A DNA stretch of 51,847 nucleotides, taken from contig JACPCP010000023.1 in the NCBI GenBank assembly GCA_016179745.1, forward strand, positions 1-51,847, written 5' to 3'. The notes under the pieces are model-generated. The model was not told the DNA's origin. It saw only the letters and a program-made list of their open reading frames with translations, and searched no databases. How positions within the stretch are numbered: position 1 is the first letter of the stretch; each line of letters starts with the position of its first letter. This DNA is from Candidatus Omnitrophota bacterium. GTDB taxonomy: Bacteria; Omnitrophota; Omnitrophia; Omnitrophales; JACQLI01. The position numbers and the translations under genes are program-made. Positions 1 to 48,932 of this stretch are shown in pieces.

Positions 1-2
1 TG

Positions 3-1202
3 GATAAGAGCGACATTCGCCAGTTTTTGATGATGATTAACAAGCTAAATGAGCGTGGGTTCTTGACCCTCGAGGATTTATCCCGCGCCGAGGTGCGGAG
101 CGGCTTAAGGCACGGAGAAGACCCGAACCTTACAGAGCCTCTCCGGAAAGCCGAAAGGCCTTGGTTGCAGGATAATGAGTTATTAAAGTGGAATCTTAGA
201 ACTACGACGACCCGTACTTTAAAGTTTCTTATGGAGAGGATAGATGAAAGAGGAATCTTCAAGCCGGAAGAGCTGGAGGGGATTGTGCTGATTGGCGGGC
301 CGGGGTTCAACGACACACAAATTCTCGAAATCGCTCGTCGATTCACACGCGCTCAATTTGTTGCAGTGGACATTGACGGTCGTTCAATCAAATTCCTGAG
401 AAATAATGTTTTAAAGGCAGATCCGACTCTGGCCGGTCGAATAAGATTTTTAGAAGGAGACCTTAGGGACTTACGCCACTTGGTTGACGCAGATGAGTCT
501 GTTATCGAATTGCCGGATCAGTCTGTCGCAGTGGCCATTTACCCGGCGGTTTTCGATATCTATCAGAATGACTATCAGGATGACTATGTGCGCCTCCGGG
601 AGCTGGGGAAAATCATCTCCGAATCACGTCGAGTGCTAAAGGCGGGTGGCATATTGGGAGCAGCACCGTTTTCAGATGCGCCACACAAATTGATGCAGAA
701 TTTAGGCTTTGAGGATTTGGATCCAGACGACCGGAAACACGAATCCTTTTTGCTTTACCGGAAACCGGAGAGTCCAAAATCCATTTCCGGAAGTGAACCG
801 CCCACTGCCCGTTCTGAGATGCGGTCTGCTTCGCCCGCCAGGGGCGAGCTTCGCAGAACCGATGCCTCTGCGGTGGAGGTGGCGGTAGGAGCGCTGTTTG
901 GGGTGATGGCGAAGGAAGTTTGGCAAGGACTGAATAGAAGCGAAACACGTGCGCTTTGGATCACGATTCGGCCGGCGAGCGTTCGGGTCAGAAGGGACGA
1001 AATGACAGGGCAAAAGACCTGGAGACAAGCCCCCGGGTCCGAGAGCTCTCAGATTGCTTTTCCGCCACAAGGCGTGGCGGCTCGCAATGACAGACGGGCA
1101 GGGCAATCTTCTCGTGCCAGGCAAGTGGTATTTCTCAGCCCCACGGATCAATGGATTACAAGCCAGGCTGAAACCGCCCCGGTCTTTGCCTCCGCCGCCT
1201 GA
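3..1202 (+). CDS. Class I SAM-dependent methyltransferase-like protein, 5' end off the window
   Basis: The frame is already open at the left edge. A TTG/ATG cluster at 27-35 could be a start, but the codons before it read on without a stop, so the gene probably begins outside. The middle shows a Rossmann methyltransferase pattern: IVLIGGPGFND as a divergent glycine-rich SAM loop, FVAVDID with the acidic residue after strand 2, LPDQSVAVAIY near strand 4, and SRRVLKAGGILGA before strand 5. Substrate unknown. After the domain (about nt 770 on) comes a low-complexity tail with the linker motif RSEMR (nt 810-824). Its last third is translated from a dispersed GTCATTGCGAG-type repeat, so the native C terminus was probably shorter. 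An N-terminal RAEVRSGLR resembles the same linker class. Confidence 0.6.
   Translation, partial: DKSDIRQFLMMINKLNERGFLTLEDLSRAEVRSGLRHGEDPNLTEPLRKAERPWLQDNELLKWNLRTTTTRTLKFLMERIDERGIFKPEELEGIVLIGGPGFNDTQILEIARRFTRAQFVAVDIDGRSIKFLRNNVLKADPTLAGRIRFLEGDLRDLRHLVDADESVIELPDQSVAVAIYPAVFDIYQNDYQDDYVRLRELGKIISESRRVLKAGGILGAAPFSDAPHKLMQNLGFEDLDPDDRKHESFLLYRKPESPKSISGSEPPTARSEMRSASPARGELRRTDASAVEVAVGALFGVMAKEVWQGLNRSETRALWITIRPASVRVRRDEMTGQKTWRQAPGSESSQIAFPPQGVAARNDRRAGQSSRARQVVFLSPTDQWITSQAETAPVFASAA
1053..1092 (-). repeat. GTCATTGCGAG...GAAGCAATC-type dispersed repeat, short copy
   Basis: On the minus strand this reads GTCATTGCGAG, a short CCGCCACG/CGTGGCGG hairpin, then AAGCAATC. The same boundary words frame the larger composite element at 29213-29368. 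It lies inside the 3' end of the methyltransferase frame and supplies part of its odd C-terminal tail. Confidence 0.55.
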
Positions 1203-14778: not shown

Positions 14779-14781
14779 CCG

Positions 14782-16637: not shown

Positions 16638-16645
16638 AGGCCCCG

Positions 16646-19935: not shown

Positions 19936-19951
19936 TTGAGGGGTAGAAAAA

Positions 19952-20227: not shown

Positions 20228-20237
20228 GGAGGGGAAA

Positions 20238-20444
20238 ATGTCTCTCAAGATCGTCCACATTTGTTTCATTCTTTTGGCGACGGCTTTGGCGGTGGGATTC
20301 GGCTTTTGGGGAATCCGGGAACCCGGGGCTGCCGGCCGCACGGTTAATTTTTATCTGGGCCTCGGCTCCCTGGGTTTGGGGGCAGGGCTCGTGGTTTATC
20401 TTTTCTGGTTCCTGTCAAAGATGAAACTCTTGTCAAAGTCGTAG
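20238..20444 (+). CDS. Small two-helix membrane protein in the cox operon
   Basis: 68 aa, AAGGAGG 11 bp before ATG 20238. Two hydrophobic segments (about 5-24 and 38-60) joined by a G/A-rich loop, with a basic C terminus. I do not recognise the family. Its position right after subunit IV suggests an oxidase accessory protein. Confidence 0.6.
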   Translation: MSLKIVHICFILLATALAVGFGFWGIREPGAAGRTVNFYLGLGSLGLGAGLVVYLFWFLSKMKLLSKS

Positions 20445-20445
20445 G

Positions 20446-20471
20446 TCACACTTAAGTGTGACCTACTTATG
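20446..20471. repeat. Perfect 26-bp palindrome
   Basis: Half-site GTAGGTCACACTT is followed immediately by its exact reverse complement. It lies between the two small cox-linked genes and ends 20 bp before the next start. No T-run, so not a classical terminator. It belongs in style with the other short palindromes of this window. Confidence 0.75.
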
Positions 20472-20491
20472 ATGTGGTATCTGGCGGGCGC

Positions 20492-20659
20492 ATGAAAAAT
20501 TGGATCCTGGCCTGTTCCGTCTGCTTCGGCGACCCCTCCTCCAACCTGAGCCGGGGGGCTTTCTGGGGCGCCTCCTTCCTGGCCGGCGTTGTTTTTCTGG
20601 TCCTTGCCTCGATCGCCTGGACGATCCTTGTCTGGAGCCGCCGCTCGCACAAGGTCTGA
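20492..20659 (+). CDS. Small cysteine-containing membrane protein (55 aa)
   Basis: From ATG 20492 (an upstream GTG at 20474 is possible but lies against the palindrome). N-terminal motif WILACSVCFGDPSS with a C-x2-C pair, then a single strong helix (about 27-48) and a basic tail SRRSHKV. The CxVCFGDP motif recurs in small proteins that I associate with oxidase and respiratory loci in several phyla; function unknown. The paired cysteines could bind metal, inferred from context only. Confidence 0.6.
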   Translation: MKNWILACSVCFGDPSSNLSRGAFWGASFLAGVVFLVLASIAWTILVWSRRSHKV

Positions 20660-20672
20660 CGGATCCCTCGGC

Positions 20673-20700
20673 TTGACAACCCCGACAAAAAAAGTAAGAT
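20673..20700 (+). promoter_or_regulatory. Candidate promoter for the nitrite/sulfite reductase gene
   Basis: TTGACA at 20673-20678, 16-bp spacer, TAAGAT at 20695-20700, 22 bp before ATG 20722. Confidence 0.5.
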
Positions 20701-20721
20701 TAAGCAGGAAAAACATCTCCC

Positions 20722-33462: not shown

Positions 33463-36400
33463 ATGAAACCAGACTCCAAAAAGCTTTGTCGAAGGGGGAC
33501 CGCTTTTTTTGTCTCCCTTTGCTTCATCCTTTTAGAAACTGTTGGCAATTTTTCTCCGCTCTTTGCCTCGGAAGGAATGCGGGACCCAGCCATTTCCATT
33601 CCGAGGCGGTTCGGTGAGATCGACGAATTCCGCCCCGGCCGGTCCGGCAAAACCCTCATTTTTATTCAGGATGCCCACGATTCTCTCGAGGCCCAGGAGA
33701 ACATCGGAAAGCTTGTGACGCACCTCGTTGAGAGAGAGGGCGTGAAAACAGTCTATGAAGAAGGTTACGAAGGCCCGGTCCCCACCGACCCGTATTTTGG
33801 ATTTATCCGGAACCCCGGACTGAAACGGAAAGTCTCCTTCTTCCTCATGGACAAGCTCCGGATCGGAGGCGCTGAATATGCCCACATCAACCGGAAGAAA
33901 GATTTTCGTCTGATCGGGGCCGACAGCCTGGCCTGGCATAAAGAGAACCTCCGATGGTTTCGACGCATGTCGGCCCGGAGAAAAGAGACCGAGCGTGACC
34001 TCGAAACGCTCGGAAGCGGGATCCGGAGGCTGGAGGACCGATTTTTCCCAAGGCCGCTCAAGGAATGGATCAAGCTCAAAGAAAGATTCACTAAAAACGA
34101 GCTCTCGTTTGCCGAGTACCTCAAAAGGCTCGGCGCCTTCACCCCCTCCTCAGGGGACTACCCGGCGATCGAACGGGTGCTTAGGGCGAGCGAAGGTCCG
34201 GCATTCGTCGAAAAGTTGAAGGCGCTTCGCCCCAAACAACTCCTCGAGGAAATGGAAGCAATGGAAAACGATTTCGCCGCAAGAGTTCTTTCGGGGGAGA
34301 GAGAAAAAGAGCTCTTTCAATACCATCAAAGCCTTTCCCTCTTGAAGAGACTCGCAGAGCTCAAGATCACGCGAGAGGAATACGGGGCCGTGCGTGGGAC
34401 CCTGAAAGATTTCAGGACGGAGGCGTTGGCCCGCTTCCTTGCCAAAAACCTCAAGGAGCCGGTAGTCCTTTCCAAAGGGTGGGAGAGGAATCTCAAAAAT
34501 GCCCTCCGATTCTACGAAACGGCATTAGAGAGAGATGATGCGGTCAGCGTCCGACTCGAAGAATTTCTGAAAGATCCTCTCGAGAAAAGGGCGGCGCTGG
34601 TCTTCGGCGGATTTCACAAGGAGAAGATCCTTGAAATCGCGAGACAAAAGGAAATCTCTTGTTTTGTTGTCACGCCCCGGATGACGGAACCGAGCCTGAA
34701 GCATCAGCGTTACTACGAGCAGCTGATGTCAGGCTTCCGCTATCCTTTTGAGAGACCGGGGAATCTACACCTGGCGGCCCGGCCCCAGACCTTTTTTGCG
34801 AGAGCCCTTGTAACGGGGAGGGCCGAGGCCCGCCGCCAGATTCGTGAACTCGCCCGGACGCTGGAGGGAAAAGGAAAGAAAGCGCCTCGATCGGAACTTC
34901 GAGGCGGCGGGAAAAGGGCGGTAACCCGTGAAGAGATAAAAGCTCTGATCGCGCCGCTTGCTCAAGGAGTCTCTCCGAAACTCAACTTTCTCACGAGCCT
35001 CGAAAAGGTGATGGAACTCAGAAAGATTACCCAGCAGGAAATGGCGGATTACGTCACTCCTCACATCAAAAAGAGACGAGGCCGGGCCCACGCCGGGATG
35101 GTCTCGCACTGGTTCCGTCACAAAAGGATCTCGGGCGAATATGCCTTGAGGGCCGCCCGCAAGACCCTCGGCGATTTTTATCCCGGCGAACCGGACGAAA
35201 AACTTCTCGCCCGGATGGCCGGAAATCCGAATTGGACGAAGGAAGAATTGACGCAGGCCTTTCCTGCTTGGAAAGGGAAGAGGCAGATGCGGCAGAGGGC
35301 GAAGAAAACCGGCGTTCCTTCCGTCGTTCTTCCCCTGACTGAGATTCATGAAATCCTGAATGCCGTCAGAGGAATTGAGCTTTCGCCCGTCGAGTGCTTC
35401 TTTGTGAGCTTTGGTTTGTTCCAGTGGAAATTGGAGGAGCGGGGTGTCCCCGTGACGACTGAAGTTGCAAGGTTTGTCGGGAGCCCCCACCCCGGAATGG
35501 TGACTCACTGGCTTCGTCGGGAATCCCTTTCCCGCCAGAACGCCCGCCTTGTCGCCGAGTATTTCCTGGGGACGGCCTTCCCGGATGATACGAGAGACGA
35601 ACTGGTCCTCAGGATGATCGCTCAGCCGGACCTAACCTCCCGGGACCTTAAAGAAATTTTTCCTGTCTGGGCGGGGAAGAAAACCCGTTCAGAACTGAGG
35701 AAGGCCCCGACACCTGCCGCCGCTCGCTGGCTGACGAACCCTGACGAGACTGACTGGGACCAAGTCTCCCAGTCCCGGAAGCGGTTTCTCGTTAACGCCC
35801 TGCTTCGGGCCACCCGGAAACTTCCGACCGATCTCCTTCGCCTTCCCGGACCCCACGCTTACTGGGAGACCCCCCTCCCGGCCCTCGCCGGAATCAACCT
35901 CGGCCGGCTTTTTCAACACTACGACGAAGAAAGAAAGGCCCTGGGCTACGAGCGGATTTCAACGACTCAATACCTTTTGCATGATCTGGGATTCCTTTAT
36001 GAAGGGCGGGCCGAGACCGAACAGAGGCTCCTCCTGGCCGGAGAAATTGAGAAAGATGAACGGATCCGTTTTCGGGAGATTTCAAAAAAGATCGGCCTTG
36101 CCCACTGGCTTCTCCTTTTTGAAACGAACCAGGCCGCCCTTTTCTATCTCCTGGCGAAGCAATACCCGGAGTTCAGCCGGGCCCAGGAGGGGCTTTTGGC
36201 GCTGATCAGTGAAGAGTTCCTGGAGCTTAAGAATGAAGAAACCCGTCCCTTCTTCTTTGAGGACCTTGAAAAGATGGAACAGAGCTTCCAAGAGTTTCAG
36301 GATCCGGAGCTTCAAGAGATCATTGCCGGGCAGATTCGAAACCGGATTTATCGCACGATTGTTGAGAGGGCCCGGAAGCAGGGGAGAGAAGGGGTGGCGA

Positions 36401-39400
36401 AACGGGCGATCGAGTCGGCGATTGGGTATTTTGAGAAACAGGCCGAAGGCCCCAACTTCCCCGAGTCTGCCCGGCCGGTTTACCACTCGGTTGCTGACGC
36501 CTACCGGCAGCTTGAAAAGGCCGATTATCAGGGTCTTCTTGAGAAAAAGGATGATAAAGGGAGCCTCCTTGAACTTGAGCTCTTCCAACTCGAAGGGATC
36601 GATTTTGCCCTGAAAAACGGAAACATTATCCTGGGGCACGAAATGGGGCTTGGAAAGACCCCCCTGGCGCTGGCCATTGTGCAGGCCCAAAAGGCGGGGC
36701 GGGTGGTGATCATTGCCCCCAACACCTTAAAAGAGGAATGGGAGAGACAAATCCGCATTTGGATCGGAAAAGATGAAAGGGTCCGGGTCATCGATGGAAA
36801 TAACCGAAAGGCCCTTCACCAGATCGAGGAGGCAAAAGCGAACGCCCGGTTCATTGTGATTAACTACGACAAAATAAGAGACCCGGAGATCGTGAAGGCG
36901 CTGAACGATTGGGGCCCGGACGTGAAGATCGGGGACGAGGTCCACCACATCAAAGAGCCCAACGCCCTCCAGTCGGGAGGGACCCAGGCGCTTAAAAAAA
37001 AGGGGGTGGGCTATCTCCAGGTCCGGGCGAAACGAAGCCTCAACCTTTCCGGCACTTCCATCATTAACGAAGTCGAAGACCTCTGGACGGTCCTTCACGA
37101 CATCGATCCTGCCGCCTTTCCAAGCCTGGAACATTTCCGTGAAAACTTTTCAAAGGACCCTCTTTCTTTGGCCCGCTTAACCCTTCTCCTTGGCAAGCGG
37201 TATTTCATCCGGCGGACGGCGGAGGAGGTCTTAGACGATGTCCCCAAAAAGAACGGCGTCGAGTTTATTCCCGTCCGGCTCGATCCGGAACAGCAGAAAG
37301 AGTATGAAAAGGAACTTGCAGGCTATTTGGCGAAGGCGAGAAAAAACATCCTGGCCGCCCAGGAAAAATTAAGGCAGATCGTTCTCGACCTGGGTTATGC
37401 CCTGAAGGGCGAGCGGGAATTCCTGCACCGACGGCCGCCCAAGCTGGCGGAGGCCGTCCGGATTGCCAAATTGAAAATTGACCGGGGAGAGAAAGTCACG
37501 ATCTTCAGCCGTTACAACCACGTAATTGAAAGGCTCAAAGAGATGCTTGCCCAAGAGCTGGGAGAAGAGGCGGTTTCATTTATCTCTTCAGGTCATACTA
37601 CGGATGAAAGGGCCGAGCGGGTCAAGGAGTTTCAGGAAAACGCCGGCAAAAAAGTCTTTCTCTCCACTTACGACCTGGGAGGAGAAGGGCTCACCCTCAC
37701 CAGTGCCAATCACGTGATTTTTACAGACCTTCCCTACACCAAGGCCAAACTCGAGCAGGCGATCGGAAGGGTGCGGCGAAAGGGGCAGGAAAAAGAAGTT
37801 TTCGTCTATGCCCTGGTGGCCCCCGGGACGATCGATGATCAAGTGGTGGAGATCTTAAGGAGGAAAGAGACCGTCTTTGACCAGGTGATCAATGCGATGC
37901 TTGCGGCCCAGGGGCTTGAGGAGCACCTGGGGGCCCGGAGGGTTGACCGGGCCCTGAGACAAGCCTCTCTGGCCGAAAGGGTGCGTGAAGCCCTTTCTTT
38001 CGCCTACGGACGTTCCCTGAAGGGGGACATTCCAGGGGCCAGGAAGTATTGGGAAGAGCTTGCGGCCGCCTATTCCGAGTCCATCGACCGGCTGGCTGCC
38101 TTCCCGATTGCCCAGGCGCTCTTTCTTTATCTGTTGAGGCTCCACGATGAAAAGATGCTCAACCTTTCAGAATCAAAGCGCTGGCTCTTCGCCCCCTCAG
38201 GGCCTTCTACGGATATCCGGGCCCTCGCCGACCTTTGGATGAAAAATGACAAGATCCGGGAGCGTTTTAGAGACGCCGGGTTTGACCTTCGGGAGCTTCT
38301 TTTTACGGAAGTCGACTTTTCCCCGTCGATGCTCGAACTCGGAAAATCTTTTCTCACGGGCAAGCTCGGCCTTTCCAGCCGGCAGAGGGTGCTCGATTTG
38401 ACCGAAGGGGAATTGCCCCGGGAGGCATATGACTTTGTGGACTCTTCGGAACTTTGGGGGTTTTCCGAAGAGGAGTCGGCGGTGAACAAAAAGGGCGTCA
38501 ATCACCGCACCTGGGTGACCGGGAAACTGGTGGAGGCGGCGAAGGTGGGGGGTTATGTTCTCTTCTGGGCCCACAACAAGGGGATCCCCGCCGAGACAAA
38601 ACAATTTCTTGAAAATTATTTTGGTTTGCAACTGATAAATCCCGAAGTGGATGGGATTGACAGCGAAGAGCTCCCTGAGGAAATCCGTAGACGGCTCGAG
38701 AAATTCTCATTCATCCTGGCGAAGAAAACGAAGCATCTCGAGATGACACCCGAATACCTTCGCTCCCTCCCGAAAGGAAGGCTTAAATTTATTTCGGGGA
38801 GGACGGCGGCCAGTCATCTTGCGGAAAGGGGCCTCTTCGAAAAGGGCGAAGGAGGAGCCCATTCAACCAGTTTAACCCAGTTTCTCTTGCATGGAGACGT
38901 AAGGCCGGTTCGGGGCTGGCGGGGGATAATGACAAGGGAGACGGAAAGAGACGCAGTTCTTTTAAAACTCACGCAGAAATTGCAGCTCTTTCTTGGGAAA
39001 GGGCCGGACTCTGAGGGGATCCAGGAAATCAACCGTATCGTTTTCGAAATTCTCAAACAGGTCCCGACCCCGGCCCTTATTGTCAGCCTGACCCGAATGA
39101 TCGAATATTTTACCAAACAAGATCCGGCGTGGGACCATTACCATTCATTCCTCGAGGGGATTGTCCAGAAACTGGCTGGAGGGAATGGAAAAGAAAAGAA
39201 GAGGAAGGCGGGGAAGAAAAGGGAGAAAAATTGGGAAGGTCCTCGAAAGCCAAAAGGGGATGGCCTGGAGGGAGAAAAAGAAAAGAAGCGGGGACCGAGA
39301 GAGGAGACGGAGGAGGGTCTTTCCGGAGGCCTTACGGATGATCAGCACCTGCTTCAGCTTTTTAAGGAAAACGGCTTTCAATTTAGAGTGAGCCCGGACT

Positions 39401-42400
39401 ACATCCCCGGAGGGCTCCAGTTGGATGGGGAAGAGAAGATCTTCTGGGTTGATCCTTATCTCGTTACCGATGGCGGTCTTTCACCCAAAGAACTTTTGCA
39501 GGTTCTGAATCTATTGACTCACCGTTATCTTCTCGCCGTGCTGAAGCAGAAGCCCGGCTCACCCGCTCAGGAGGACCCCGATGTGGTAGACCGGGCCTCA
39601 CTGAGTCTTGTCTGGCAGCGCTTTAAGCTGCTTCGCAAGGCCAACCGGGACCTCAAAATACTTGAGTCGCTCGACCCCATGAATTCAGAGGACATCTTCT
39701 GGTTTTTCATCAACCTCCGTTCCCTGACGGAAGAGGACATCCAGGGAGTGGTCGAGGGAACCCAGCCGGTCCCGGAGTGGTTTCGCCAGCGTTCCGAAGT
39801 GCGGCAGGGCCATGGAACAGGCGGCGAGAGCGCCAACGTGCGTCTGAGAGTCAATCGGGTCGTGGACCAAATCCGGGATGCTCTTGCGGCCTTAAGAGAA
39901 AAAGATCCGGTCGACCTGGCCCCTCTCTCAGACCCTGCCTTGATTGGCGATTTTTTCAAGCGGCACGGTAAGAAATTCCCCGGCTTGGATCAAGGGCGCC
40001 TGATTGTCCAGTCATCAGGGTATCCGGTCGTGGTCGAGCCGTGGGATCCGGAAGAGAAGACCGAACGTAGAGAGCTTGCGTGGCTTGTGAATAAAGAGGG
40101 AGAAGACGGCCGGTCCCGTAAGGATTGGGTCATCAACTGGTCCGAGGTGGAATTGCCGGGGCCGCCCGGCCGATACGAAAATGGAGGAAGAGTCTCTAAA
40201 GCGCATGTTCCGTATGAGAGTAATCGGGGATGGACAGACGTCCCTTATTCAAGGTTTTACAAAGAAGGGGCTCTGCTCCAGAGAACCCAAGGGCCGGAGA
40301 AGAGATTCCTCATAGTTCCTGAGTCGGATCAAGGTAGAAAGGTCGTGCGCTTCCTTGTTTTTACGCTGGACCCGGAGGGGCGGAGGAGTGTCCGGCCTGT
40401 TGCTTTTTGGGAGGAGCTTCAAGGCCAAAGGATTGATGGGAAGGGCTTTTATTTTTCACACCGGATCCTGACTTTCTCCGGCATGACCATCGGCTTGGGC
40501 AATCCGGATTGGAAGCATGACGCAGTCTTCTTCAGCACAGATCTCGATGGAAGACCGGAGAAGCTGGAAATTTTCGTCCCCAAGTTTGTCCCCGAAGAAA
40601 CGGACAACCCCCGTTCTGAAGTGCGTGACGCCGCACTCCCGATGACCGAGCGGGTAAGTCAGGTGCTCGAGAGGGTGAGAACGGCCATTCATCAACTTCA
40701 GGCAAAGCCGGCTCAACCGGCAGCTGCCGGTCAGCCAAGCGGCGATCGGCCCGGCACCCCAGAAGGGCATCTTATTAGAAAGGCGAGAAAAGAGCTTCTT
40801 GCTGTGATTGAAGATTCTTTTGGCAGCCTTGAGGAAAAAAAGTATTGGAAGACAAAATTAAGGCAAAAGAACTACGGCGCTCTCATTCAATCTCCGTTTT
40901 TCCCCAGCTTTGTCAGGAATGTCAGTTCAAACTACCTGGATTCTACCCATGAGGAACTGGTCAAACTGCTTGAAGAACTCCAGAAGAATCAAGAGTCAGA
41001 GGAATCGATGGCGTTGAGGCAGCTCATTCAGATTGTCCTCTTTGCCTGGTATCCCGATTTGGAGGAGGAGATGGATGCGCCAAAGATTAATGCGGGCCGG
41101 CTTTCAAGAGGGATTGAAAAGGAAAGGCATAAAGAATCTACGTATCGTGGAGAAGAGCTTCATTTTAGCGACGAAAAACCTGGAGAGTTTGGATTGTTTC
41201 ACCCGGAGGATTTTGGGAGACGAGTCAGAATCGAAAATGCCGACCCGCTCCGGTTTGCCTCCATGCTTGCCGCCACGGGCCACGCCCTGGGTGACGAAAG
41301 CGCCCGGAGCGGTTTGGCTCCGGGGAGCGTTCAATGGCTTAAGGATAATTTCTGGACACAATACGGGAATCGGTTGGAGGGGATTCGTCCCGAAGATCTT
41401 GAAGTAAGGCTGAGGAGGTTTCGGGTGCGTAAGGAGTTGGGCAGGAAAGAGGAGTTTGTGACAAGAGACGAGATCCAGGTGATTTGGCTCAAGCCCGAGG
41501 AATCAGGGCCCCAAACTCCGCCGGCCGGACGTCTTGAGGTCGAGATCGCAAGACTGGGGACCGGCTTCCGGCGGGGAGATCTCCAGGGCCGCTGGCATTT
41601 GGATTGGTCCCACGCCACGTTTCCGGTCCCGAAGGGAAAATATGCGGCCGGTAAATCCCTGGGGGAAGGCGACAGAGTAACCTTGAGTTGGGACGATCTT
41701 CAGAAAGACGGGATCCTCGTCAAAGACCCAAACTACCCGCAGCAGGGTTTACACATTTTGCCGCTTAAAATAGGGGGAGAAGAAAAACAGATCGCCATCT
41801 TCAACGTAGATGGAGAAGGCCGGAGAATAGAAGCGAAGCCGGCCGCCGTTTTAAAACAAGGAGAGAGCGTGCTGACACAAGGCGGTGTTTTTGGTTCCCG
41901 CTGGGGAGTGAATGTCTTTGACCGCACAGTGATTCAGCACCTCGGCCCTGATGGGATCAAGGTTGAGCATCACTCTTGGGATTACAACGACACTCGGTGG
42001 ATGGATTTTAAATTTTTCTTTCGGGCGCACTTTTCAAAGGCGGTTCCTGGAAAAAAGGATTTATTGAAGAAGTTCGACGCCTTGGAGGGTCTGCTGAAAG
42101 AGGCGCAAGGCCTGGAACACCTTCAGAGAATTGGACGGTCTCAGACCCTTCGGGGCAGAATAGAACGGATTTTGAAAGACGCCAGAAGTCATTTGGAAGC
42201 AGGAGATCCTTTTCGGGCCGCCCGGACCTTATGGCAGATCGGGGACGATGCGGCCTCCCTTAAAGAAGTGGAAGAAAGAGGCGGAAAAGAGATCTTGGTT
42301 GGGATACGCAGTCTCGTAAAAAATCTTAAAGAGGCGTCCATAAAACCCGAATGGCAGCAAGCGGCCGGCAGGATGGGGAGAAAAGCAGTCAGGGAGGAGG

Positions 42401-44832
42401 AGGTCGAAAAAGTGCTGCGGTCGGCTTACGGGGTTGGGATTAAAGAGGTTGCAAAGGAGATCGAAAATTCAGTTGTTGAGAGAATGGAATTGCCCAGAGG
42501 CAGTCTTTGGCGTTACGGGACCCCTTCCTATGCGGGTTGGTGGAATGAAACCCTCTCCCTTCCCGGGTTTACAATTCCTCTTCTTGACCACAGTATTTAC
42601 TACCATATGCCAGAGATGGTTCGCTGGCTTCGGGGACTCTACACAGAAATCAGAAAAGGACGGTCCAGGGACCTCCTCTTGAATCCACGGTTTGGTCATC
42701 TCAGCAAAGCCGACAGTCCGAGATGGCATCGGAAGTTCGGCCTCGAGCGATGGACTGCCTTCGTCCACAACTTTGCGATGCTTGCCCAAATGAAAAAAGC
42801 CGAGAGGAAATCCGAGCCCTCCAAAGCTCGCTCCGAGCTTAGGAGTCAGGAGATTCAAGCGAGTGTTCGTCAGGTAGAAGAGAAATTTCACGCCATGATT
42901 GCGGGATTAAAGGATGGGTCAAAGAGACCCCCCGCGCGAAGCGCTGACTCAGGCGAATCGCCTCGCAAAGCAGGGGAAACCGCCCAAGAAGAAACTCCTC
43001 CCGAGGCAGAACCTTTGGAGGTAGGGCGTTTGAAGGAAAAAGGGTGGAGCCTCATTCAAACGGCGATTCCTCAGGCCAAGTTTGTGGGAGACGTTAGTGC
43101 CCCGTATTCGTATTGGTTAGAGCTCGCGAAAAAACGAGATTCTTTCAGACTCGATACCCCTCTCTTCTATCGGTTTATTCGCGGAGTCGGCTTCGGAGAG
43201 AAGAGGATCCCGTTCGAGTTTCTGGCTTTTCTTAAGGAGCTAGGGGCTTACCCGACGGATCCTCATCTATCTGCCTTGAGAGAATTGATCCGGGGAATGA
43301 TCTTTGCCTGGTATCCGAATTTAGAAGAGGAGATTTTCGCGCTGACCCTCAATACTGCAAGAATAGAAGAGAGGATTCACCAGCAAGAATTTCAGTTGGA
43401 AGAGCATTACCATAAATTTGGTCTTCATGACCCGCCGTACGATCCAGAGGACGGTCCGGTTAAGTTCGATCTTCTGGAGATATTAGAATTTTTCGCTGAC
43501 GGCTTCCTAAGCAAGATCGACTGGTTAAGGGTCGCGTCGATTCTTGCGGCAAAACCGTTTGCGATTGAGTTTAGTAACGAAACCAAGGATTTTCTGAAAG
43601 GAAATTTTGTGAGTCAGTATGGAGATAGACTTGGCGCGATCAATCCCGAAAAGCTCGAGGTCAGGGTCTACAATAATCAGCGAATCACCTACCCGGCTCC
43701 CGGTGTCGAGTTTTCTGAAGAGATTACTAATAACCAAGTGTGGATTGTGCTTCCTGGCCTCCTGGGCGAGATTCATCTGGCCCGTCTCGGGACCGGTTTC
43801 ATCCGGGGGGATCGGCAAGGGGTTTGGCACGTCGACTGGAGTCGAATGGAATTTCCGATTCAGTCCGAAAGAAGATATTCCCCGGGCATGGCCCTTGCGA
43901 ATAAACCTTATGCCACACTCTCTTGGAAAGAGGTCGGCAACGAAGGGATTTTTGTGAGAAACCCTTCGGACGAAAAAGAATCCCTTGTTGGTTTCCCCTT
44001 CAAGGTCCCAGGAGAAGAAGTCCAGCTTGCGATCTTCTCCCTGGGCCCCGAAGGGAAAAGGAATAATCCCAGGCCGATTGCGAGTCTGAGAACAGGAAAT
44101 CATTTTGTCCACGGTTCTCGTGGGGCATCGTGGAATCGGGAACCACGTGTCTCTATTTCTTTCCAAAATCGGGGCCCTTCCGGAATCCATATAGAGCACT
44201 CACGCGTCCCGGATGAAAAACAGGTTTTCTTCCAGGCGCTTTTTTCAGAAGGGCCCAAATCTATTCGTGCAGAAACTCGAGAAGCGAAGATGCGCAAGCC
44301 CATTCGGGTTTCCAAATTGATTGAGAGGTTCTCGGCGCCCGCTCGGGCGATCCTGGATGCTCGGGAGCTTGAGTTCCTGGATCCGGAACAGCTTGACGAG
44401 CTTCTTGTTTTACTCAAGCGTCATCGTGATTTCGATCTTTACCTCTACAATGTTCAAAAGGCGAGTCTGGCTTCGGGCCGGGCGGGGGAGCTCGTCCGCT
44501 TGAAACAGGTCCATCAAAGGGGGGAGGTCACCCTAGAAGAGGCGCTCCGAAATTTGGACCTTGGACGAAAGAAAGTCGTCTTCCATCTTTCGAGGCAGTT
44601 TGTTCCTCGTTTGGCAGAAATCGAGAAATGGCGGGCTCGGGCCCTCTTCGTCAATTATGAGCAGGCAGGGGTCTTGAGCTGGTTCCTTTACCGAACGGAA
44701 CTTGGGAGGAGAGGGAACGATCTTGATGAGTTCTTTGTCGGGATCGACGGCCGGTGGGCCGTCTCTCACGGGCTTCTGGAGACTTTTGTTGCCGATCTCA
44801 GAGAGGATTTGGCCATTGCCTGGTCCGCTTAA
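33463..44832 (+). CDS. Giant multidomain protein (3789 aa) with signal peptide, SNF2 helicase, MTase-like and triplicated modules
   Basis: Residues 1-36: Sec-type signal (KKLCRR, then FFVSLCFILLETVG, ending FAS). 50-440: domain with LIFIQDAHDSLEAQENIGKL and VYEEGYEGP, a family I recall from Omnitrophota, superficially like TraB/ChaN hydrolase folds. 505-610 and 632-740: two similar HTH-like modules (HAGMVSHWF at 543, HPGMVTHWL at 676). 1030-1480: SNF2 ATPase with GHEMGLGKT (1058), GDEVHH (about 1159) and AIGRVRRKGQ (about 1434). 1560-1750: methyltransferase-like (VDFSPSMLELGK, VGGYVLFW). 1906-1956: very charged linker. 2222-2376, 2440-2860 and 3190-3597: three related modules. RSExR linkers start at residues 476, 742, 2110, 2384 and 3123. 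No stop or frameshift in 11.4 kb. An exported protein should not need an ATP-driven DNA translocase; that contradiction is unexplained. Confidence 0.85.
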   Translation: MKPDSKKLCRRGTAFFVSLCFILLETVGNFSPLFASEGMRDPAISIPRRFGEIDEFRPGRSGKTLIFIQDAHDSLEAQENIGKLVTHLVEREGVKTVYEEGYEGPVPTDPYFGFIRNPGLKRKVSFFLMDKLRIGGAEYAHINRKKDFRLIGADSLAWHKENLRWFRRMSARRKETERDLETLGSGIRRLEDRFFPRPLKEWIKLKERFTKNELSFAEYLKRLGAFTPSSGDYPAIERVLRASEGPAFVEKLKALRPKQLLEEMEAMENDFAARVLSGEREKELFQYHQSLSLLKRLAELKITREEYGAVRGTLKDFRTEALARFLAKNLKEPVVLSKGWERNLKNALRFYETALERDDAVSVRLEEFLKDPLEKRAALVFGGFHKEKILEIARQKEISCFVVTPRMTEPSLKHQRYYEQLMSGFRYPFERPGNLHLAARPQTFFARALVTGRAEARRQIRELARTLEGKGKKAPRSELRGGGKRAVTREEIKALIAPLAQGVSPKLNFLTSLEKVMELRKITQQEMADYVTPHIKKRRGRAHAGMVSHWFRHKRISGEYALRAARKTLGDFYPGEPDEKLLARMAGNPNWTKEELTQAFPAWKGKRQMRQRAKKTGVPSVVLPLTEIHEILNAVRGIELSPVECFFVSFGLFQWKLEERGVPVTTEVARFVGSPHPGMVTHWLRRESLSRQNARLVAEYFLGTAFPDDTRDELVLRMIAQPDLTSRDLKEIFPVWAGKKTRSELRKAPTPAAARWLTNPDETDWDQVSQSRKRFLVNALLRATRKLPTDLLRLPGPHAYWETPLPALAGINLGRLFQHYDEERKALGYERISTTQYLLHDLGFLYEGRAETEQRLLLAGEIEKDERIRFREISKKIGLAHWLLLFETNQAALFYLLAKQYPEFSRAQEGLLALISEEFLELKNEETRPFFFEDLEKMEQSFQEFQDPELQEIIAGQIRNRIYRTIVERARKQGREGVAKRAIESAIGYFEKQAEGPNFPESARPVYHSVADAYRQLEKADYQGLLEKKDDKGSLLELELFQLEGIDFALKNGNIILGHEMGLGKTPLALAIVQAQKAGRVVIIAPNTLKEEWERQIRIWIGKDERVRVIDGNNRKALHQIEEAKANARFIVINYDKIRDPEIVKALNDWGPDVKIGDEVHHIKEPNALQSGGTQALKKKGVGYLQVRAKRSLNLSGTSIINEVEDLWTVLHDIDPAAFPSLEHFRENFSKDPLSLARLTLLLGKRYFIRRTAEEVLDDVPKKNGVEFIPVRLDPEQQKEYEKELAGYLAKARKNILAAQEKLRQIVLDLGYALKGEREFLHRRPPKLAEAVRIAKLKIDRGEKVTIFSRYNHVIERLKEMLAQELGEEAVSFISSGHTTDERAERVKEFQENAGKKVFLSTYDLGGEGLTLTSANHVIFTDLPYTKAKLEQAIGRVRRKGQEKEVFVYALVAPGTIDDQVVEILRRKETVFDQVINAMLAAQGLEEHLGARRVDRALRQASLAERVREALSFAYGRSLKGDIPGARKYWEELAAAYSESIDRLAAFPIAQALFLYLLRLHDEKMLNLSESKRWLFAPSGPSTDIRALADLWMKNDKIRERFRDAGFDLRELLFTEVDFSPSMLELGKSFLTGKLGLSSRQRVLDLTEGELPREAYDFVDSSELWGFSEEESAVNKKGVNHRTWVTGKLVEAAKVGGYVLFWAHNKGIPAETKQFLENYFGLQLINPEVDGIDSEELPEEIRRRLEKFSFILAKKTKHLEMTPEYLRSLPKGRLKFISGRTAASHLAERGLFEKGEGGAHSTSLTQFLLHGDVRPVRGWRGIMTRETERDAVLLKLTQKLQLFLGKGPDSEGIQEINRIVFEILKQVPTPALIVSLTRMIEYFTKQDPAWDHYHSFLEGIVQKLAGGNGKEKKRKAGKKREKNWEGPRKPKGDGLEGEKEKKRGPREETEEGLSGGLTDDQHLLQLFKENGFQFRVSPDYIPGGLQLDGEEKIFWVDPYLVTDGGLSPKELLQVLNLLTHRYLLAVLKQKPGSPAQEDPDVVDRASLSLVWQRFKLLRKANRDLKILESLDPMNSEDIFWFFINLRSLTEEDIQGVVEGTQPVPEWFRQRSEVRQGHGTGGESANVRLRVNRVVDQIRDALAALREKDPVDLAPLSDPALIGDFFKRHGKKFPGLDQGRLIVQSSGYPVVVEPWDPEEKTERRELAWLVNKEGEDGRSRKDWVINWSEVELPGPPGRYENGGRVSKAHVPYESNRGWTDVPYSRFYKEGALLQRTQGPEKRFLIVPESDQGRKVVRFLVFTLDPEGRRSVRPVAFWEELQGQRIDGKGFYFSHRILTFSGMTIGLGNPDWKHDAVFFSTDLDGRPEKLEIFVPKFVPEETDNPRSEVRDAALPMTERVSQVLERVRTAIHQLQAKPAQPAAAGQPSGDRPGTPEGHLIRKARKELLAVIEDSFGSLEEKKYWKTKLRQKNYGALIQSPFFPSFVRNVSSNYLDSTHEELVKLLEELQKNQESEESMALRQLIQIVLFAWYPDLEEEMDAPKINAGRLSRGIEKERHKESTYRGEELHFSDEKPGEFGLFHPEDFGRRVRIENADPLRFASMLAATGHALGDESARSGLAPGSVQWLKDNFWTQYGNRLEGIRPEDLEVRLRRFRVRKELGRKEEFVTRDEIQVIWLKPEESGPQTPPAGRLEVEIARLGTGFRRGDLQGRWHLDWSHATFPVPKGKYAAGKSLGEGDRVTLSWDDLQKDGILVKDPNYPQQGLHILPLKIGGEEKQIAIFNVDGEGRRIEAKPAAVLKQGESVLTQGGVFGSRWGVNVFDRTVIQHLGPDGIKVEHHSWDYNDTRWMDFKFFFRAHFSKAVPGKKDLLKKFDALEGLLKEAQGLEHLQRIGRSQTLRGRIERILKDARSHLEAGDPFRAARTLWQIGDDAASLKEVEERGGKEILVGIRSLVKNLKEASIKPEWQQAAGRMGRKAVREEEVEKVLRSAYGVGIKEVAKEIENSVVERMELPRGSLWRYGTPSYAGWWNETLSLPGFTIPLLDHSIYYHMPEMVRWLRGLYTEIRKGRSRDLLLNPRFGHLSKADSPRWHRKFGLERWTAFVHNFAMLAQMKKAERKSEPSKARSELRSQEIQASVRQVEEKFHAMIAGLKDGSKRPPARSADSGESPRKAGETAQEETPPEAEPLEVGRLKEKGWSLIQTAIPQAKFVGDVSAPYSYWLELAKKRDSFRLDTPLFYRFIRGVGFGEKRIPFEFLAFLKELGAYPTDPHLSALRELIRGMIFAWYPNLEEEIFALTLNTARIEERIHQQEFQLEEHYHKFGLHDPPYDPEDGPVKFDLLEILEFFADGFLSKIDWLRVASILAAKPFAIEFSNETKDFLKGNFVSQYGDRLGAINPEKLEVRVYNNQRITYPAPGVEFSEEITNNQVWIVLPGLLGEIHLARLGTGFIRGDRQGVWHVDWSRMEFPIQSERRYSPGMALANKPYATLSWKEVGNEGIFVRNPSDEKESLVGFPFKVPGEEVQLAIFSLGPEGKRNNPRPIASLRTGNHFVHGSRGASWNREPRVSISFQNRGPSGIHIEHSRVPDEKQVFFQALFSEGPKSIRAETREAKMRKPIRVSKLIERFSAPARAILDARELEFLDPEQLDELLVLLKRHRDFDLYLYNVQKASLASGRAGELVRLKQVHQRGEVTLEEALRNLDLGRKKVVFHLSRQFVPRLAEIEKWRARALFVNYEQAGVLSWFLYRTELGRRGNDLDEFFVGIDGRWAVSHGLLETFVADLREDLAIAWSA

Positions 44833-45800: not shown

Positions 45801-47309
45801 ATGAAAATCAATCTGGTTTCCCTCTCAGAAAAACGCCGCCCCGCCGACCTGCTCCTTGCCGGAGCCTTTGAGGGCGTCAAATCCTTGAATCTTCTCCGCT
45901 CCCTCGAGCCGGAATTTGCCCGGACGGCGGAGCAGGCTCTCAAGACGAAGCGCTTCAGCGGAAAAAAAGGGGAAAGCCTGAGTTCTTTGAGTCAAGGAGT
46001 CCGGGAGGCGGCTGAAATTTATTTGACCGGGCTCGGAGCCGTGGACAAATTCAACCGGGCCTCGCTTGCGAAGACGATTGCCAGCCTCATCCGATTGGCC
46101 CGGTGCCGGAAGGCGAAGCGGGTGCGGCTCCTTTTTGAGAGTTTCCTCGGAGGGAAAATTCAAGCCGCCCCGGCCGCAGGGATTTTTGCCGAGGCCGGTG
46201 TCCTGGCCAGTTACACCTTTGACAAATACAAAACGAAGAAGGAGAAGGACGACGGAAAATTTTCGGGGCCGGAAGTTTTGGAAATTCTCGTCACGAAAAA
46301 AGGGGCGGAGAAAAATCTTGGGCAAAATATTCAAGAAGCCCAAATCATTGCTGAAGGCACGCTCCGGGCTCGAAACCTTGTCAATGAGCCGGGCAATGTG
46401 ATCAATCCCCAGACCCTCGTGGCGGAGGCCCGAAAGCTTGCCCGTGAGAAAGGACTTCGCCTGACTGTCCTCGGCCCCGCTGACCTGAAGCGCCTTCAAA
46501 TGGGCGGCATCCTCGGCGTGAATCAGGGTTCCAAAATTCCGCCCGCTTTGATCATTCTGGAATACGGCGCCTCCCACAAATCCAAAGGAACGGTTTGTCT
46601 GGTCGGGAAAGGCGTCACCTTCGACACGGGCGGAATTTCAATCAAGCCCTCAAACGATATGGAGAAGATGAAATACGACAAGGCCGGCGCCTGCACTGTA
46701 ATTGCCACAATGGGGGTTGTGAGAGATCTCAAGCTTCCCCTTCACGTGGTGGGGTTGGCGCCTGCGGTCGAGAACATGCCGAGCGAAAATCCCCAGCGGC
46801 CGGGCGATATCATCCGGATGTCCAACGGAAAGACCGTGGAGGTCATCAATACGGATGCCGAAGGCCGGCTCATCCTGGGCGACGCCCTGGCCTACGCCGC
46901 CAAATACAAGCCGAAGGCCGTGATTGACCTGGCGACCTTGACCGGAATGTGCGTCTACACCTTCAGTGATCAGGCGATTGGTCTCATGGGAAATAATGAT
47001 TCCCTCCTCGCCCAAATCAAAAAAGCGGGGGAAGAGACCGGAGAACGGTGCTGGGAGCTTCCGCTTTGGGACGAATACGGCGAAATGATCAAGGGACACC
47101 ATTCGGACCTTCTCAATACCGGCGGAAAATATGCCGGCACAATCACCGCAGCGATGTTCCTGAAGGAATTTATCCCTCCGAAAACCGCCTGGGCCCATCT
47201 CGACATTGCAGGAACGGCGTGGTGCGATAAACCCCGGGCCGATTGTCCACAGGGGGCCACGGGCGTGGGCGTCAGGCTTCTGGCGCATCTTCTCAAAAAT
47301 TGGAAATAA
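45801..47309 (+). CDS. pepA: Leucyl aminopeptidase (M17 family)
   Basis: 502 aa cytosolic hexameric metallopeptidase releasing N-terminal residues. ATG 45801 behind GGAGG (about 45785). The N-terminal macro-like domain (1-170) is followed by the catalytic domain: LVGKGVTFDTGGISIKPS (Lys and first Asp), MKYDKAGA, the signature NTDAEGRLILGDAL and the end GATGVGVRLLAHLL. Both zinc-ligand sets look intact. Some M17 proteins double as DNA-binding regulators; nothing here tests that. Confidence 0.95.
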   Translation: MKINLVSLSEKRRPADLLLAGAFEGVKSLNLLRSLEPEFARTAEQALKTKRFSGKKGESLSSLSQGVREAAEIYLTGLGAVDKFNRASLAKTIASLIRLARCRKAKRVRLLFESFLGGKIQAAPAAGIFAEAGVLASYTFDKYKTKKEKDDGKFSGPEVLEILVTKKGAEKNLGQNIQEAQIIAEGTLRARNLVNEPGNVINPQTLVAEARKLAREKGLRLTVLGPADLKRLQMGGILGVNQGSKIPPALIILEYGASHKSKGTVCLVGKGVTFDTGGISIKPSNDMEKMKYDKAGACTVIATMGVVRDLKLPLHVVGLAPAVENMPSENPQRPGDIIRMSNGKTVEVINTDAEGRLILGDALAYAAKYKPKAVIDLATLTGMCVYTFSDQAIGLMGNNDSLLAQIKKAGEETGERCWELPLWDEYGEMIKGHHSDLLNTGGKYAGTITAAMFLKEFIPPKTAWAHLDIAGTAWCDKPRADCPQGATGVGVRLLAHLLKNWK

Positions 47310-47347
47310 GATTCGAAGCCGCCGGGCCTTCTTCCCGCCCCTGACCG

Positions 47348-48004
47348 ATGCCTTCAAAGCGAAAACCAGCAGCCAAAAAATTCAAGCTGCCCCGGGAAGT
47401 GGCCGTCTTTCCGCTCCCCAACGTGATTCTCTTTCCCCGGGTGGAGCTGCCGCTCTATATCTTTGAGGCCCGATACCGGCAAATGCTGGCCCAGGCCCTG
47501 GCCGGAAATAAGTTCATCGCCGTCTCGCTGCTCCAAAAAGGCTGGGAGGCCGAAAAGGAACCTTATCCCATTCATCCGATCGTCGGCGTGGGTCTCCTCA
47601 AGGCGGTGGTCCAGAATGCGGACGGGACCTCGCACGTTCTTTTGAAGGGGATGGAGCGGGCGAGGATCGTGAACTATCTTCAGATGGAACCCTTCCGGGT
47701 TGCCCGGATCCGCCCCGTTCCGGACAAAGTGGAGGACCGCCGGGAGCTCCGTGAGATGGGCCGGACCCTTCGGGAGCTTTTCATTCAAAAACTCAAACTG
47801 GCCAGCGAGAAGCCGGCCGAAGAATTTACCCTGCCGAAGGAACTCGAGGACCCCATTGCCCTTTCGCATTTTGTCAGTTTCACGGCCCACACCGACCCCT
47901 ACCTCAAGCAGGATATCCTGGAGACGACGAATGCCAATTGCCGGGTCAAGCATTTGATCTCCCTCCTCGAGGAGGAAATTTTTCCGACGGGGACGCAAAA
48001 CTAA
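47348..48004 (+). CDS. Stand-alone LON substrate-binding domain protein
   Basis: 218 aa matching only the N-terminal (LAN) domain of Lon protease: FPLPNVILFPRVELPLYIFEARYRQM, then VGVGLLKAVVQNADGTSHVLLKGMERARI, and a helical end (DILETTNANCRVKHLISLLEEE). No ATPase or protease domain follows. Short proteins of this type are thought to bind substrates or regulate Lon. A basic KRKPAAKKFK N terminus precedes the domain. Its stop overlaps the next start (TAATG). Confidence 0.88.
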   Translation: MPSKRKPAAKKFKLPREVAVFPLPNVILFPRVELPLYIFEARYRQMLAQALAGNKFIAVSLLQKGWEAEKEPYPIHPIVGVGLLKAVVQNADGTSHVLLKGMERARIVNYLQMEPFRVARIRPVPDKVEDRRELREMGRTLRELFIQKLKLASEKPAEEFTLPKELEDPIALSHFVSFTAHTDPYLKQDILETTNANCRVKHLISLLEEEIFPTGTQN

Positions 48005-48579
48005 TGGGCGGCAGCCGGGCCGGGCTCATTTCAAAAATTCAGACGGTTTGCCGGGACCTTTTCCTGTCGGGCCTCATTGATTCCCATTCGGGGAATGTCA
48101 GTGTGCGCCGGGGGAAAAACATTTTGATTAAAAAAACGGGCGCCCAGCTTCGCCATTTTTCAAAAAGCGACTTCGTGGAATTCCCGCTCAAGGCCCTTTC
48201 TCATCCCGGCGTCTCCTCCGACTACCTGACTCACCGGAAGATTTATCTCGAGGTCCCCCAGGCCCAGGCGGTCCTTCACGCCCATCCGCCCACGGCCGTG
48301 GCGCTGTCTCTATTTCTGAACGAAATAAAGACCGTTGACCTCGAGGGGCATTATTATCTGCCCTGCATTCCGGTCGTTTCAGTGAATTACAAGACTTACG
48401 CCGAGGAAACCCGCAGGAAGCTTCCCGAGGTCCTCCGAAAATACCCGGTGGCCATTGTCCGGGGCCACGGCACCTTCGCCCACGGGAAAGACCTCGACGA
48501 GGCCCTCCAATGGACCACCCTGGTTGAGCAAGTCTCCAAGATCTATTTCCTCTCCCGCCTTTACAAAAAAATCTCCTGA
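48004..48579 (+). CDS. Class II aldolase/adducin family protein
   Basis: 191 aa from ATG 48004. SGLIDSHSGNVSVRRG is the phosphate/substrate loop, AVLHAHPPTAVAL holds the H-x-H zinc pair and VRGHGTFAHG the third histidine. Family members cleave sugar-phosphates (fuculose, ribulose) or dehydrate methylthioribulose phosphate; substrate not decidable. Translationally coupled to the LON-domain gene, an unusual partner. Confidence 0.85.
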   Translation: MGGSRAGLISKIQTVCRDLFLSGLIDSHSGNVSVRRGKNILIKKTGAQLRHFSKSDFVEFPLKALSHPGVSSDYLTHRKIYLEVPQAQAVLHAHPPTAVALSLFLNEIKTVDLEGHYYLPCIPVVSVNYKTYAEETRRKLPEVLRKYPVAIVRGHGTFAHGKDLDEALQWTTLVEQVSKIYFLSRLYKKIS

Positions 48580-48587
48580 GTTTTCTG

Positions 48588-48615
48588 TTGCGGTGGAATT
48601 GATTCGCAGTATAAT
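48588..48615 (+). promoter_or_regulatory. Promoter for the riboswitch-TonB receptor transcript
   Basis: TTGCGG at 48588-48593, 16-bp spacer, TATAAT at 48610-48615. The start would be near 48622, about 22 nt before the aptamer. Confidence 0.7.
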
Positions 48616-48644
48616 CCTGCTCACGCATTTTGATCTTTGTCACT

Positions 48645-48879
48645 GAACAGGCGCCCACAAGGGCTTAATAGGGAAGAGAGAGGGAAGGCAATTCTTAATT
48701 GCCTTTCCCGGCTCCACGGTCCCGCCGCTGTCGGCAAGAAGAAGAGCGAAAAGCCACTTTCTTCTTCGCCCGCTTTGCGGGCTTCGAAGGAATTGAATTC
48801 CTGCGAAGCTCAGCTTCGGAGCGAAGCAGAAGGGAAGGCGATCGCAATGAGGCTTGCCAGTCAGAAGACCTGCCTGTTC
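48645..48879 (+). ncRNA. Cobalamin riboswitch (B12 box aptamer)
   Basis: P1 is perfect: GAACAGGC (48645-48652) with GCCTGTTC (48872-48879). In order: AGGGCTTAATAGGGAAG, a GGCAATT/AATTGCC hairpin, CGCCGCTGT, AGCCACT, a peripheral region with several GC hairpins, then GGGAAGGCGATCGCAATGA and GCCAGTCAGAAGACCTGCC, the B12 box. These are the conserved landmarks of adenosylcobalamin-type aptamers. A GTCCGC/GCGGAC hairpin (48888-48907) between aptamer and start may be the expression platform; there is no U-run, so translational control is likelier. Confidence 0.9.
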
Positions 48880-48932
48880 TGAACTTCGTCCGCTAAGGTT
48901 CTTGGCGGACCTTCTCCGAGAGAGGGAAGAAA

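What the first reader, a model, noticed from the sequence alone, without database searches (positions are those of the whole stretch)
33463..44832. RSE[LVM]R linker motif punctuating a giant protein and another protein
Five copies of R-S-E-[LV]-R begin at residues 476, 742, 2110, 2384 and 3123 of the 3789-aa protein, each in a low-complexity stretch between modules. RSEMR appears in an unrelated methyltransferase at nt 810-824, again just after the folded domain. The DNA encoding the copies differs at synonymous positions, which points to conservation of the peptide and not to a recent DNA repeat. A motif confined to interdomain linkers could be a processing site for a dedicated protease (polyprotein maturation), a sorting tag or a docking site. 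I recall similar motifs in Omnitrophota proteins but know of no description.
Basis: partly seen in the sequence, partly recalled or inferred. Interest (0 to 1): 0.78.

Follow-up and report, generated by a model that had tools for sequence, protein, structure and literature searches.

The report
Conserved linker motif dividing giant proteins
A whole order of uncultured Omnitrophota bacteria makes enormous exported proteins that string ordinary-looking enzymes together like beads, and between the beads sits the same five-residue sequence, which looks like a site where a protease cuts the chain into separate proteins.

Summary
The motif is real and much larger than reported. An unbiased 5-mer ranking of the giant ORFs in this genome puts RSEVR, RAEVR and RSEAR first (39, 37 and 28 copies; 0.14-0.19 expected). 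The true motif is R-[SA]-E-[VLAMIT]-R, with about 480 copies in 57 giants, enriched in most genomes of one Omnitrophota order and nowhere else in the phylum. No copy touches a Pfam domain (0 of 161; 20 expected). It marks breakpoints between homologous modules. It is almost never followed by Pro (2 of 482; 22 expected) or bulky residues, but by S/T/N/A/G/M: a protease P1' profile.

The giants share three parts: (1) a signal-peptide-like N-terminus plus a header with the His-Glu, Arg, His set of TIKI-superfamily hydrolases (82/82 conserved); (2) cargo modules (glycolytic enzymes, SNF2 helicase, kinase, sigma factor) separated by the motif; (3) a C-terminal -[SA]A tag (28/32). The 'unrelated methyltransferase' is the tail of another such giant.

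Best reading: exported polyproteins matured by cleavage after the last Arg. The protease is unidentified: C11, C14, S8 and S41 do not track the motif, C25 was inconclusive, and the TIKI-like header leads. Cleavage is inferred, not shown.

The parts
33463..44832 (+). 3789-aa giant modular protein (header, SNF2 module, repeated modules, C-terminal tag)
   Evidence: one open frame; Pfam SNF2/Helicase_C
33463..33576 (+). N-terminal signal-peptide-like hydrophobic segment (read by eye; no predictor run)
   Evidence: sequence MKPDSKKLCRRGTAFFVSLCFILLETVGNFSPLFASEG; equivalents in other giants
33577..34809 (+). header domain, TIKI/ChaN-like, family found in 47/47 genomes of the order
33676..33678 (+). 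header His72 (invariant 82/82), first half of the TIKI-type His-Glu pair
   Evidence: spacing compared with PMC6254334
33760..33762 (+). header Glu100 (invariant 83/83), 28 residues after His72
34531..34533 (+). header Arg357 (invariant 82/82)
34606..34617 (+). header GGFH motif, second His (His385, 82/82)
34819..34833 (+). motif RAEAR
34888..34902 (+). motif RSELR (residue 476)
35686..35700 (+). motif RSELR (residue 742)
36613..37785 (+). SNF2/Helicase_C module core (residues 1051-1441), no motif inside
39790..39804 (+). motif RSEVR (residue 2110)
39805..40611 (+). inter-motif module, partial copy of the following repeated module
   Evidence: E 8e-7
40612..40626 (+). motif RSEVR (residue 2384)
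40627..42828 (+). inter-motif module, homologous to the next one (33% identity, E 8e-52)
42829..42843 (+). motif RSELR (residue 3123)
42844..44265 (+). inter-motif module; homology to the previous module stops 4 residues before the next motif
44266..44280 (+). motif RAETR (residue 3602)
44815..44829 (+). C-terminal tag IAWSA ([LVI]-A-x-[SA]-A class)
3..1202 (+). 3' part of a second giant cut by the contig start (methyltransferase module, three motifs, C-terminal ASAA tag)
1..99 (+). 99 bp identical to the end of contig C8; identity ends one base after the RAEVR motif, then the modules differ
84..98 (+). motif RAEVR
810..824 (+). motif RSEMR
936..950 (+). motif RSETR

Best explanation
R-[SA]-E-[VLAMIT]-R is a proteolytic maturation site in a family of exported modular polyproteins of one Omnitrophota order. 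Each precursor has a signal-peptide-like N-terminus, a TIKI-superfamily-like header, a chain of independently folded modules joined by linkers carrying the motif, and a C-terminal -[SA]A tag. After export, an endoprotease cuts after the last Arg (RSEVR | S/T/N/A/G/M) and frees the modules. New modules are gained and swapped with breakpoints at the motif, so each arrives in frame with its own site. Shown: the motif, its strictness, its linker confinement, its place at module borders, the P1'-like flank, the shared header and tag. Inferred: export, cleavage, the protease. The header is the leading protease candidate (about 0.3).
For: Over-representation about 200-fold, with R1, E3 and R5 nearly invariant: K only 8 times at position 1 and once at position 5, D twice at position 3, against 482 motifs. 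No motif in any Pfam domain (0/161; 19.9 +- 4.2 expected); some domains are bracketed within a few residues (triosephosphate isomerase 8 and 5 aa; phosphoglucomutase 15 and 24 aa). Pro at +1 2/482 against 45/1165 after other R...R; bulky residues 0.33 of expectation; S/A/T/N/G/M 1.94-fold. In pairs of homologous giants 20 of 62 internal alignment ends have a motif within 20 aa on both sides (0.59 expected, maximum 4 in 500 trials). All five contig ends that carry a motif have it 84-119 nt from the end, at the k=99 branch point; C22 and C8 share 99 bp ending at the motif and then diverge. In the five aligned cases where both homologues have the motif it is kept while flanks diverge (3 to 14 identities in 30). 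The same peptide is written with different codons in other genera, and position 4 is lineage-specific: RSELR only in G020, mostly RSEMR in L135. Header H72/E100/R357/H385 conserved 82/82 with TIKI-like spacing (PMC6254334).
Against: No cleavage product has been seen. No known Arg-specific protease family tracks the motif. Header and C-terminal tag also occur in same-order genomes without the motif, and the header occurs outside the order, so the header is not specific to the motif. Some spacings are only 8-40 aa, which would release short peptides. In 11 of 16 aligned cases the motif is present in only one homologue. The header fold model is weak (pLDDT 66) with no PDB match.
Confidence: 0.65

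Rival explanations
1. The motif is a docking or sorting ligand: each linker binds a receptor (surface layer, export channel or scaffold) and the chain stays intact.
For: Short, strict, repeated linear motif in linkers; no protease found.
Against: The sharp exclusion of Pro and bulky residues at +1 only, with Pro enriched at -1 to -3, is a cleavage-type signature; a docking peptide would not need it.
Confidence: 0.17
2. The motif is chiefly a DNA-level junction: a 15-bp sequence CGC[TG]CCGAGG[TC]GCGG that helps modules recombine in frame; the peptide is a by-product.
For: Codons at the motif are strongly biased in several giants of this genome (GTG 87% against 33%); identity ends at the motif at a contig branch.
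Against: 82 of 82 copies with up to 2 mismatches inside giant ORFs lie in sense frame 0. In other genomes nearly every 15-mer is different (23/25, 68/75, 49/50) while the peptide stays fixed. The +1 residue bias lies outside the 15 bp.
Confidence: 0.1
3. Structural spacer: a short charged segment favoured as a linker cap, without a partner protein.
For: Linker position.
Against: Almost no K for R or D for E beside 482 copies; equally charged alternatives and permutations are absent or rare.
Confidence: 0.04
4. Sub-hypothesis of the best explanation: the header domain itself is the processing protease and cuts in cis or in trans.
For: Invariant His72, Glu100, Arg357 and His385, with H-E spacing 28 as in Bcr135 and RRSP and R-H spacing 28 against 29 (PMC6254334); each His/Glu follows a predicted strand; present at the head of giants whose N-terminus is visible.
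Against: Also present where the motif is absent; the ExH Glu is D/T/N; only weak Pfam ChaN matches.
Confidence: 0.3

Closest known systems
Omnitrophota giant ORFs (Seymour et al. 2023, PMC10066038)
   Same: Same phylum, giant modular proteins, few annotated domains, thought to act outside the cell
   Different: That paper does not contain the string RSE; a common header, processing site or C-terminal tag is not in the passages read. The window giant (11.4 kb) is below its 20-kb cut; others here (43.9 kb in this genome) are above it
Porphyromonas gingivalis RgpA/Kgp/HagA polyproteins (cut by gingipains at Arg/Lys)
   Same: Bacterial exported multi-module precursors cut after basic residues (own knowledge; see PMC10319874)
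   Different: C25 peptidase not detected in the order (control also silent); cargo here is enzymes and regulators, not adhesins
MARTX toxins (PMC6315884)
   Same: Giant exported protein, conserved ends, variable modular cargo that is swapped by recombination and released at inter-module linkers
   Different: No MARTX cysteine protease domain or RTX repeats among the Pfam matches of the giants scanned; site is RSEVR; cargo differs
TIKI superfamily hydrolases (Tiki, TraB, Ere/Bcr135, RRSP, ChaN)
   Same: His-Glu pair 28 apart, Arg and second His 28 apart, each near a strand end
   Different: First Glu of 2His/2Glu not kept; used as the header of giant modular proteins; fold not confirmed
Polymorphic toxin systems (PMC3482391)
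   Same: Constant N-terminal part, variable cargo
   Different: Many modules per chain, a fixed inter-module motif, no C-terminal toxin domain recognised

Membership tests
TIKI superfamily (header domain) | His-Glu pair near strand ends, about 28 residues apart | tested here: met
   H72 82/82 and E100 83/83; follow predicted strands 64-70 and 96-99
TIKI superfamily (header domain) | Second His and a conserved Arg near the active site | tested here: met
   R357 and H385 82/82, 28 apart (RRSP 29) (PMC6254334)
TIKI superfamily (header domain) | Second Glu of the 2His/2Glu set (ExH) | tested here: not met
   position 70 is D48/T15/N13/E6
TIKI superfamily (header domain) | Parallel beta-sheet fold | tested here: inconclusive
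   model pLDDT 66, no PDB match; Pfam ChaN best E 1.6e-5 in 1 of 10 and 0.019 in 2 of 9 members
Gingipain-type polyproteins | C25 peptidase in the genome | tested here: inconclusive
   0/47 genomes, but the control rang in no genome either
MARTX | RTX repeats and cysteine protease domain | tested here: not met
   none among Pfam matches of the giants scanned
Polyprotein with sequence-specific processing | Recurrent site between folded domains, none inside | tested here: met
   0/161 inside domains
Polyprotein with sequence-specific processing | Cleavage at the site | not testable with these tools
   needs N-terminomics or an assay
Polyprotein with sequence-specific processing | Identified cognate protease | tested here: inconclusive
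   C11, C14, S8 and S41 do not track the motif; other families and the header's activity untested

The most novel reading that the evidence does not exclude
A self-maturing polyprotein platform: a TIKI-type protease header leads and cuts an exported chain of up to more than 14,000 residues of captured, paralogous metabolic and regulatory enzymes at RSEVR sites. The motif serves both as cleavage site and as in-frame module-exchange junction, so the bacteria assemble new exported enzyme sets (for example a chain with homologues of most glycolytic enzymes) for use outside the cytoplasm, possibly on prey or host cells.
Probability: 0.2. Interest if true: 0.95.

Novelty: categorically new. Interest (0 to 1): 0.87.

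Why it matters
Giant proteins of Omnitrophota are among the largest known, and their fate is an open question. A survey of huge proteins states that some could be cleaved into smaller functional proteins and that the difficulty is predicting the proteases and the motifs they recognise (PMC11573180). Here is such a motif with a predicted scissile bond, a module map and a protease candidate, so the question becomes directly testable. It would also mean that counting these ORFs as single proteins is wrong, and that a bacterial order uses virus-like polyprotein economy on a genome scale. The principle of cleaving polyproteins is known; this combination of motif, header and tag matches no family described in the sources searched.

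Tried and rejected
Chance or composition: rejected. Purely DNA repeat: rejected as the main cause (sense frame only; different codons elsewhere), though recent copying is evident in this genome. Internal Shine-Dalgarno signal (GAGGTG): dropped, since RSEAR, RSELR and RSEMR copies lack it. Known Arg-specific proteases: C11 0/47, C14 3/47, S8 11/47 with none in G000, G009, G050 or G032, which have the motif; S41 tail protease 18/47 with no relation; C25 0/47 but the control was silent. Header by profile against PDB sequences: nothing credible. Header by fold search: nothing. The search for related loci with the diverse header alignment A1: no conserved stretch; the window header alone gave 10 named Omnitrophota loci. 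Literature: no paper in the held library describes RSELR, RSEMR or RSEVR as a motif; Omnitrophota plus polyprotein gives none. The Velamenicoccus paper (PMC9004380) is not held.

Full report
What was checked. Two more copies of a wider motif lie in the same ORF (RAEAR 34819, RAETR 44266), and two more lie in the ORF at 3-1202 (RAEVR 84, RSETR 936). The window is contig C22 of a 1.50-Mb, 79%-complete genome; its header relatives are all Candidatus Omnitrophota.

The motif is not chance. A degenerate DNA scan showed clusters of in-frame copies on other contigs, and fetching those stretches revealed further giant ORFs, the largest 14,650 aa and still cut by the contig end, with 21 copies. Ranking all 5-mers in 61,014 aa of giant ORFs without any prior puts RSEVR (39 against 0.14), RAEVR (37 against 0.19) and RSEAR (28 against 0.18) on top. 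Over 57 giants of many genera there are 482 copies of R[SA]E[VALTMI]R. At the R and E positions conservative replacements are nearly absent: K 8 times at position 1 and once at position 5, D twice at position 3. Permuted motifs occur 0-3 times.

Distribution. A pattern for R[SA]E[VA]R over 285 genomes of the phylum clearly exceeds its reversed control only inside the window's order (this genome 93 against 10; G050 148 against 10; G012 98 against 7); other orders and classes stay near their control. A second pattern for RSE[LVMI]R extends this to most genomes of the order and shows no clear excess in G044, G042, G026, G088 and G097. The fourth position is lineage-specific (only RSELR in 21,833 aa of G020, mostly RSEMR in L135, RSEAR/RSETR in L140), whereas R, E and R stay. 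Codons differ almost from copy to copy in other genomes (23 of 25, 68 of 75 and 49 of 50 distinct 15-mers). In several giants of this genome, by contrast, the 15-mer is nearly uniform (CGC[TG]CCGAGG[TC]GCGG), always in the sense frame (82/82 inside giant ORFs). The simplest reading is recent copying of the junction plus selection on the peptide.

Where it sits. Pfam scans found complete or partial domains of ordinary enzymes and regulators in the giants: triosephosphate isomerase, phosphoglycerate kinase, GAPDH C-domain, glucose-6-phosphate isomerase, class II aldolase, phosphoglucomutase, phosphoglycerate mutase and phosphofructokinase (the last in G009), together with SNF2 helicase, protein kinase, sigma-70, HD, response regulator, epimerases, PLP enzyme, HAD and methyltransferase. 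None of 161 motifs overlaps a domain; 19.9 +- 4.2 were expected and the lowest of 5000 shifts was 7. The isomerase in contig C1 is bracketed by RSEAR 8 residues before and 5 after, and keeps its catalytic Lys, His and Glu by eye. In the window protein, two neighbouring inter-motif segments are copies of one module (33% identity, E 8e-52), and their similarity stops four residues before the next motif.

Module borders. Comparing giants of different genera, homologous segments begin and end at motifs: 20 of 62 internal alignment ends have a motif within 20 residues on both sides (0.59 expected). For example G018 2920-4226 matches G056 1684-2985, with motifs at 2925/4218 and 1689/2977. In the five aligned cases where both homologues carry the motif, it is kept while flanks are much less alike (3, 6, 6, 6 and 14 identities in 30). 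In 11 further cases only one homologue has it, so sites come and go. The assembly adds an independent hint: the genome was assembled with k=99 (several contig ends overlap by exactly 99 bp), and every contig end that carries a motif within 260 bp has it 84-119 nt from the end. The window start and the end of contig C8 are identical for 99 bp, through RAEVR, and then continue with different modules. This cannot tell strain variation from duplication.

Cleavage signature. Directly after the motif, Pro occurs 2 times in 482 (22 expected), against 45 in 1165 after other R...R; bulky residues are at a third of expectation; S, A, T, N, G and M are nearly doubled. Pro is enriched just before the motif, and positions further away are near background. 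This is the shape of a protease P1' preference and predicts cleavage after the last Arg. It is an inference from sequence.

Header and tail. The giants of this genome with a visible N-terminus start with a signal-peptide-like segment (by eye) and one common domain. Its family is found in 47 of 47 genomes of the order, 1 to 40 copies each, at the head of ORFs up to about 13,000 aa, and more sparsely elsewhere in the phylum, where some copies are short ORFs of 430-550 aa. In 82 aligned headers His72, Glu100, Arg357 and His385 are invariant. The His-Glu spacing of 28 equals that of Bcr135 and RRSP, and the Arg-His spacing is 28 against 29 (PMC6254334). The Glu of the ExH motif is not kept, the Pfam ChaN/Tiki matches are weak, and the fold model is poor. 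TIKI membership is therefore likely but not proven. At the other end, 28 of 32 complete header proteins end in -[SA]A, against 17 of 291 other ORFs, most of the 17 being pieces of giants without the header. The tag occurs on unrelated tail modules and also in genomes without the motif, so it is an independent signal of unknown role.

The protease. C11 peptidases are absent from the order, caspase-like C14 occur in 3 genomes, S8 in 11 and not in this genome, G009, G050 or G032, S41 in 18 without pattern. C25 was not found, but the control rang nowhere, so that test is inconclusive. The header is the best remaining candidate, since each giant brings it along, but it also occurs without the motif.

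Verdict. The motif is a genuine, order-wide, strictly conserved linker element that marks module borders in probably exported giant proteins. Proteolytic maturation is the best-supported function (0.65). The system resembles gingipain-processed polyproteins and MARTX toxins in logic, but no defining part of either was found here. The label 'categorically new' refers to the combination of motif, header and tag; the principle of polyprotein cleavage is known.

Noticed in passing
44815-44829 and 1185-1199: Giants of this class end in a C-terminal -[SA]A tag (consensus [LVI]-A-x-[SA]-A), 28 of 32 complete members, also in genomes without the linker motif.
   Followed up: partly
L040:6811-7593; C8:60618-61361: The only triosephosphate isomerases found in this genome lie inside giant ORFs; most other genomes of the order have a separate, better-scoring standalone copy. 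The genome is 79% complete.
   Followed up: partly
C8 contig, 20934-64883 (-): A 14,650-aa ORF (still open at the contig end) carries diverged homologues of most glycolytic enzymes in one chain.
   Followed up: partly
C8:2045-5349 (-): Two adjacent overlapping ORFs (864 and 290 aa) with motifs and a tag look like a giant broken by a frameshift, or an assembly error.
   Followed up: no
G044 giants (L111-L114): Giants with the same header and tag but no linker motif; instead many copies of a repeat around FERIAEASG / LGEGV.
   Followed up: no
L050, L043, L039 linkers: Some linkers hold short recurrent sequences such as PRGLRRTGARAEVR and HPERGPFGPS, which look like small palindromic DNA repeats read in frame.
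   Followed up: no
3700-22860: The window also encodes a ResB-CcsA fusion (1164 aa), a multi-domain cytochrome c, cytochrome oxidase subunit I, a nitrite/sulfite reductase-like protein and MlaE: signs of a respiratory Omnitrophota.
   Followed up: no
45801-50831: Next to the giant: a leucyl aminopeptidase (M17), a LON substrate-binding domain protein and a TonB-dependent receptor.
   Followed up: no
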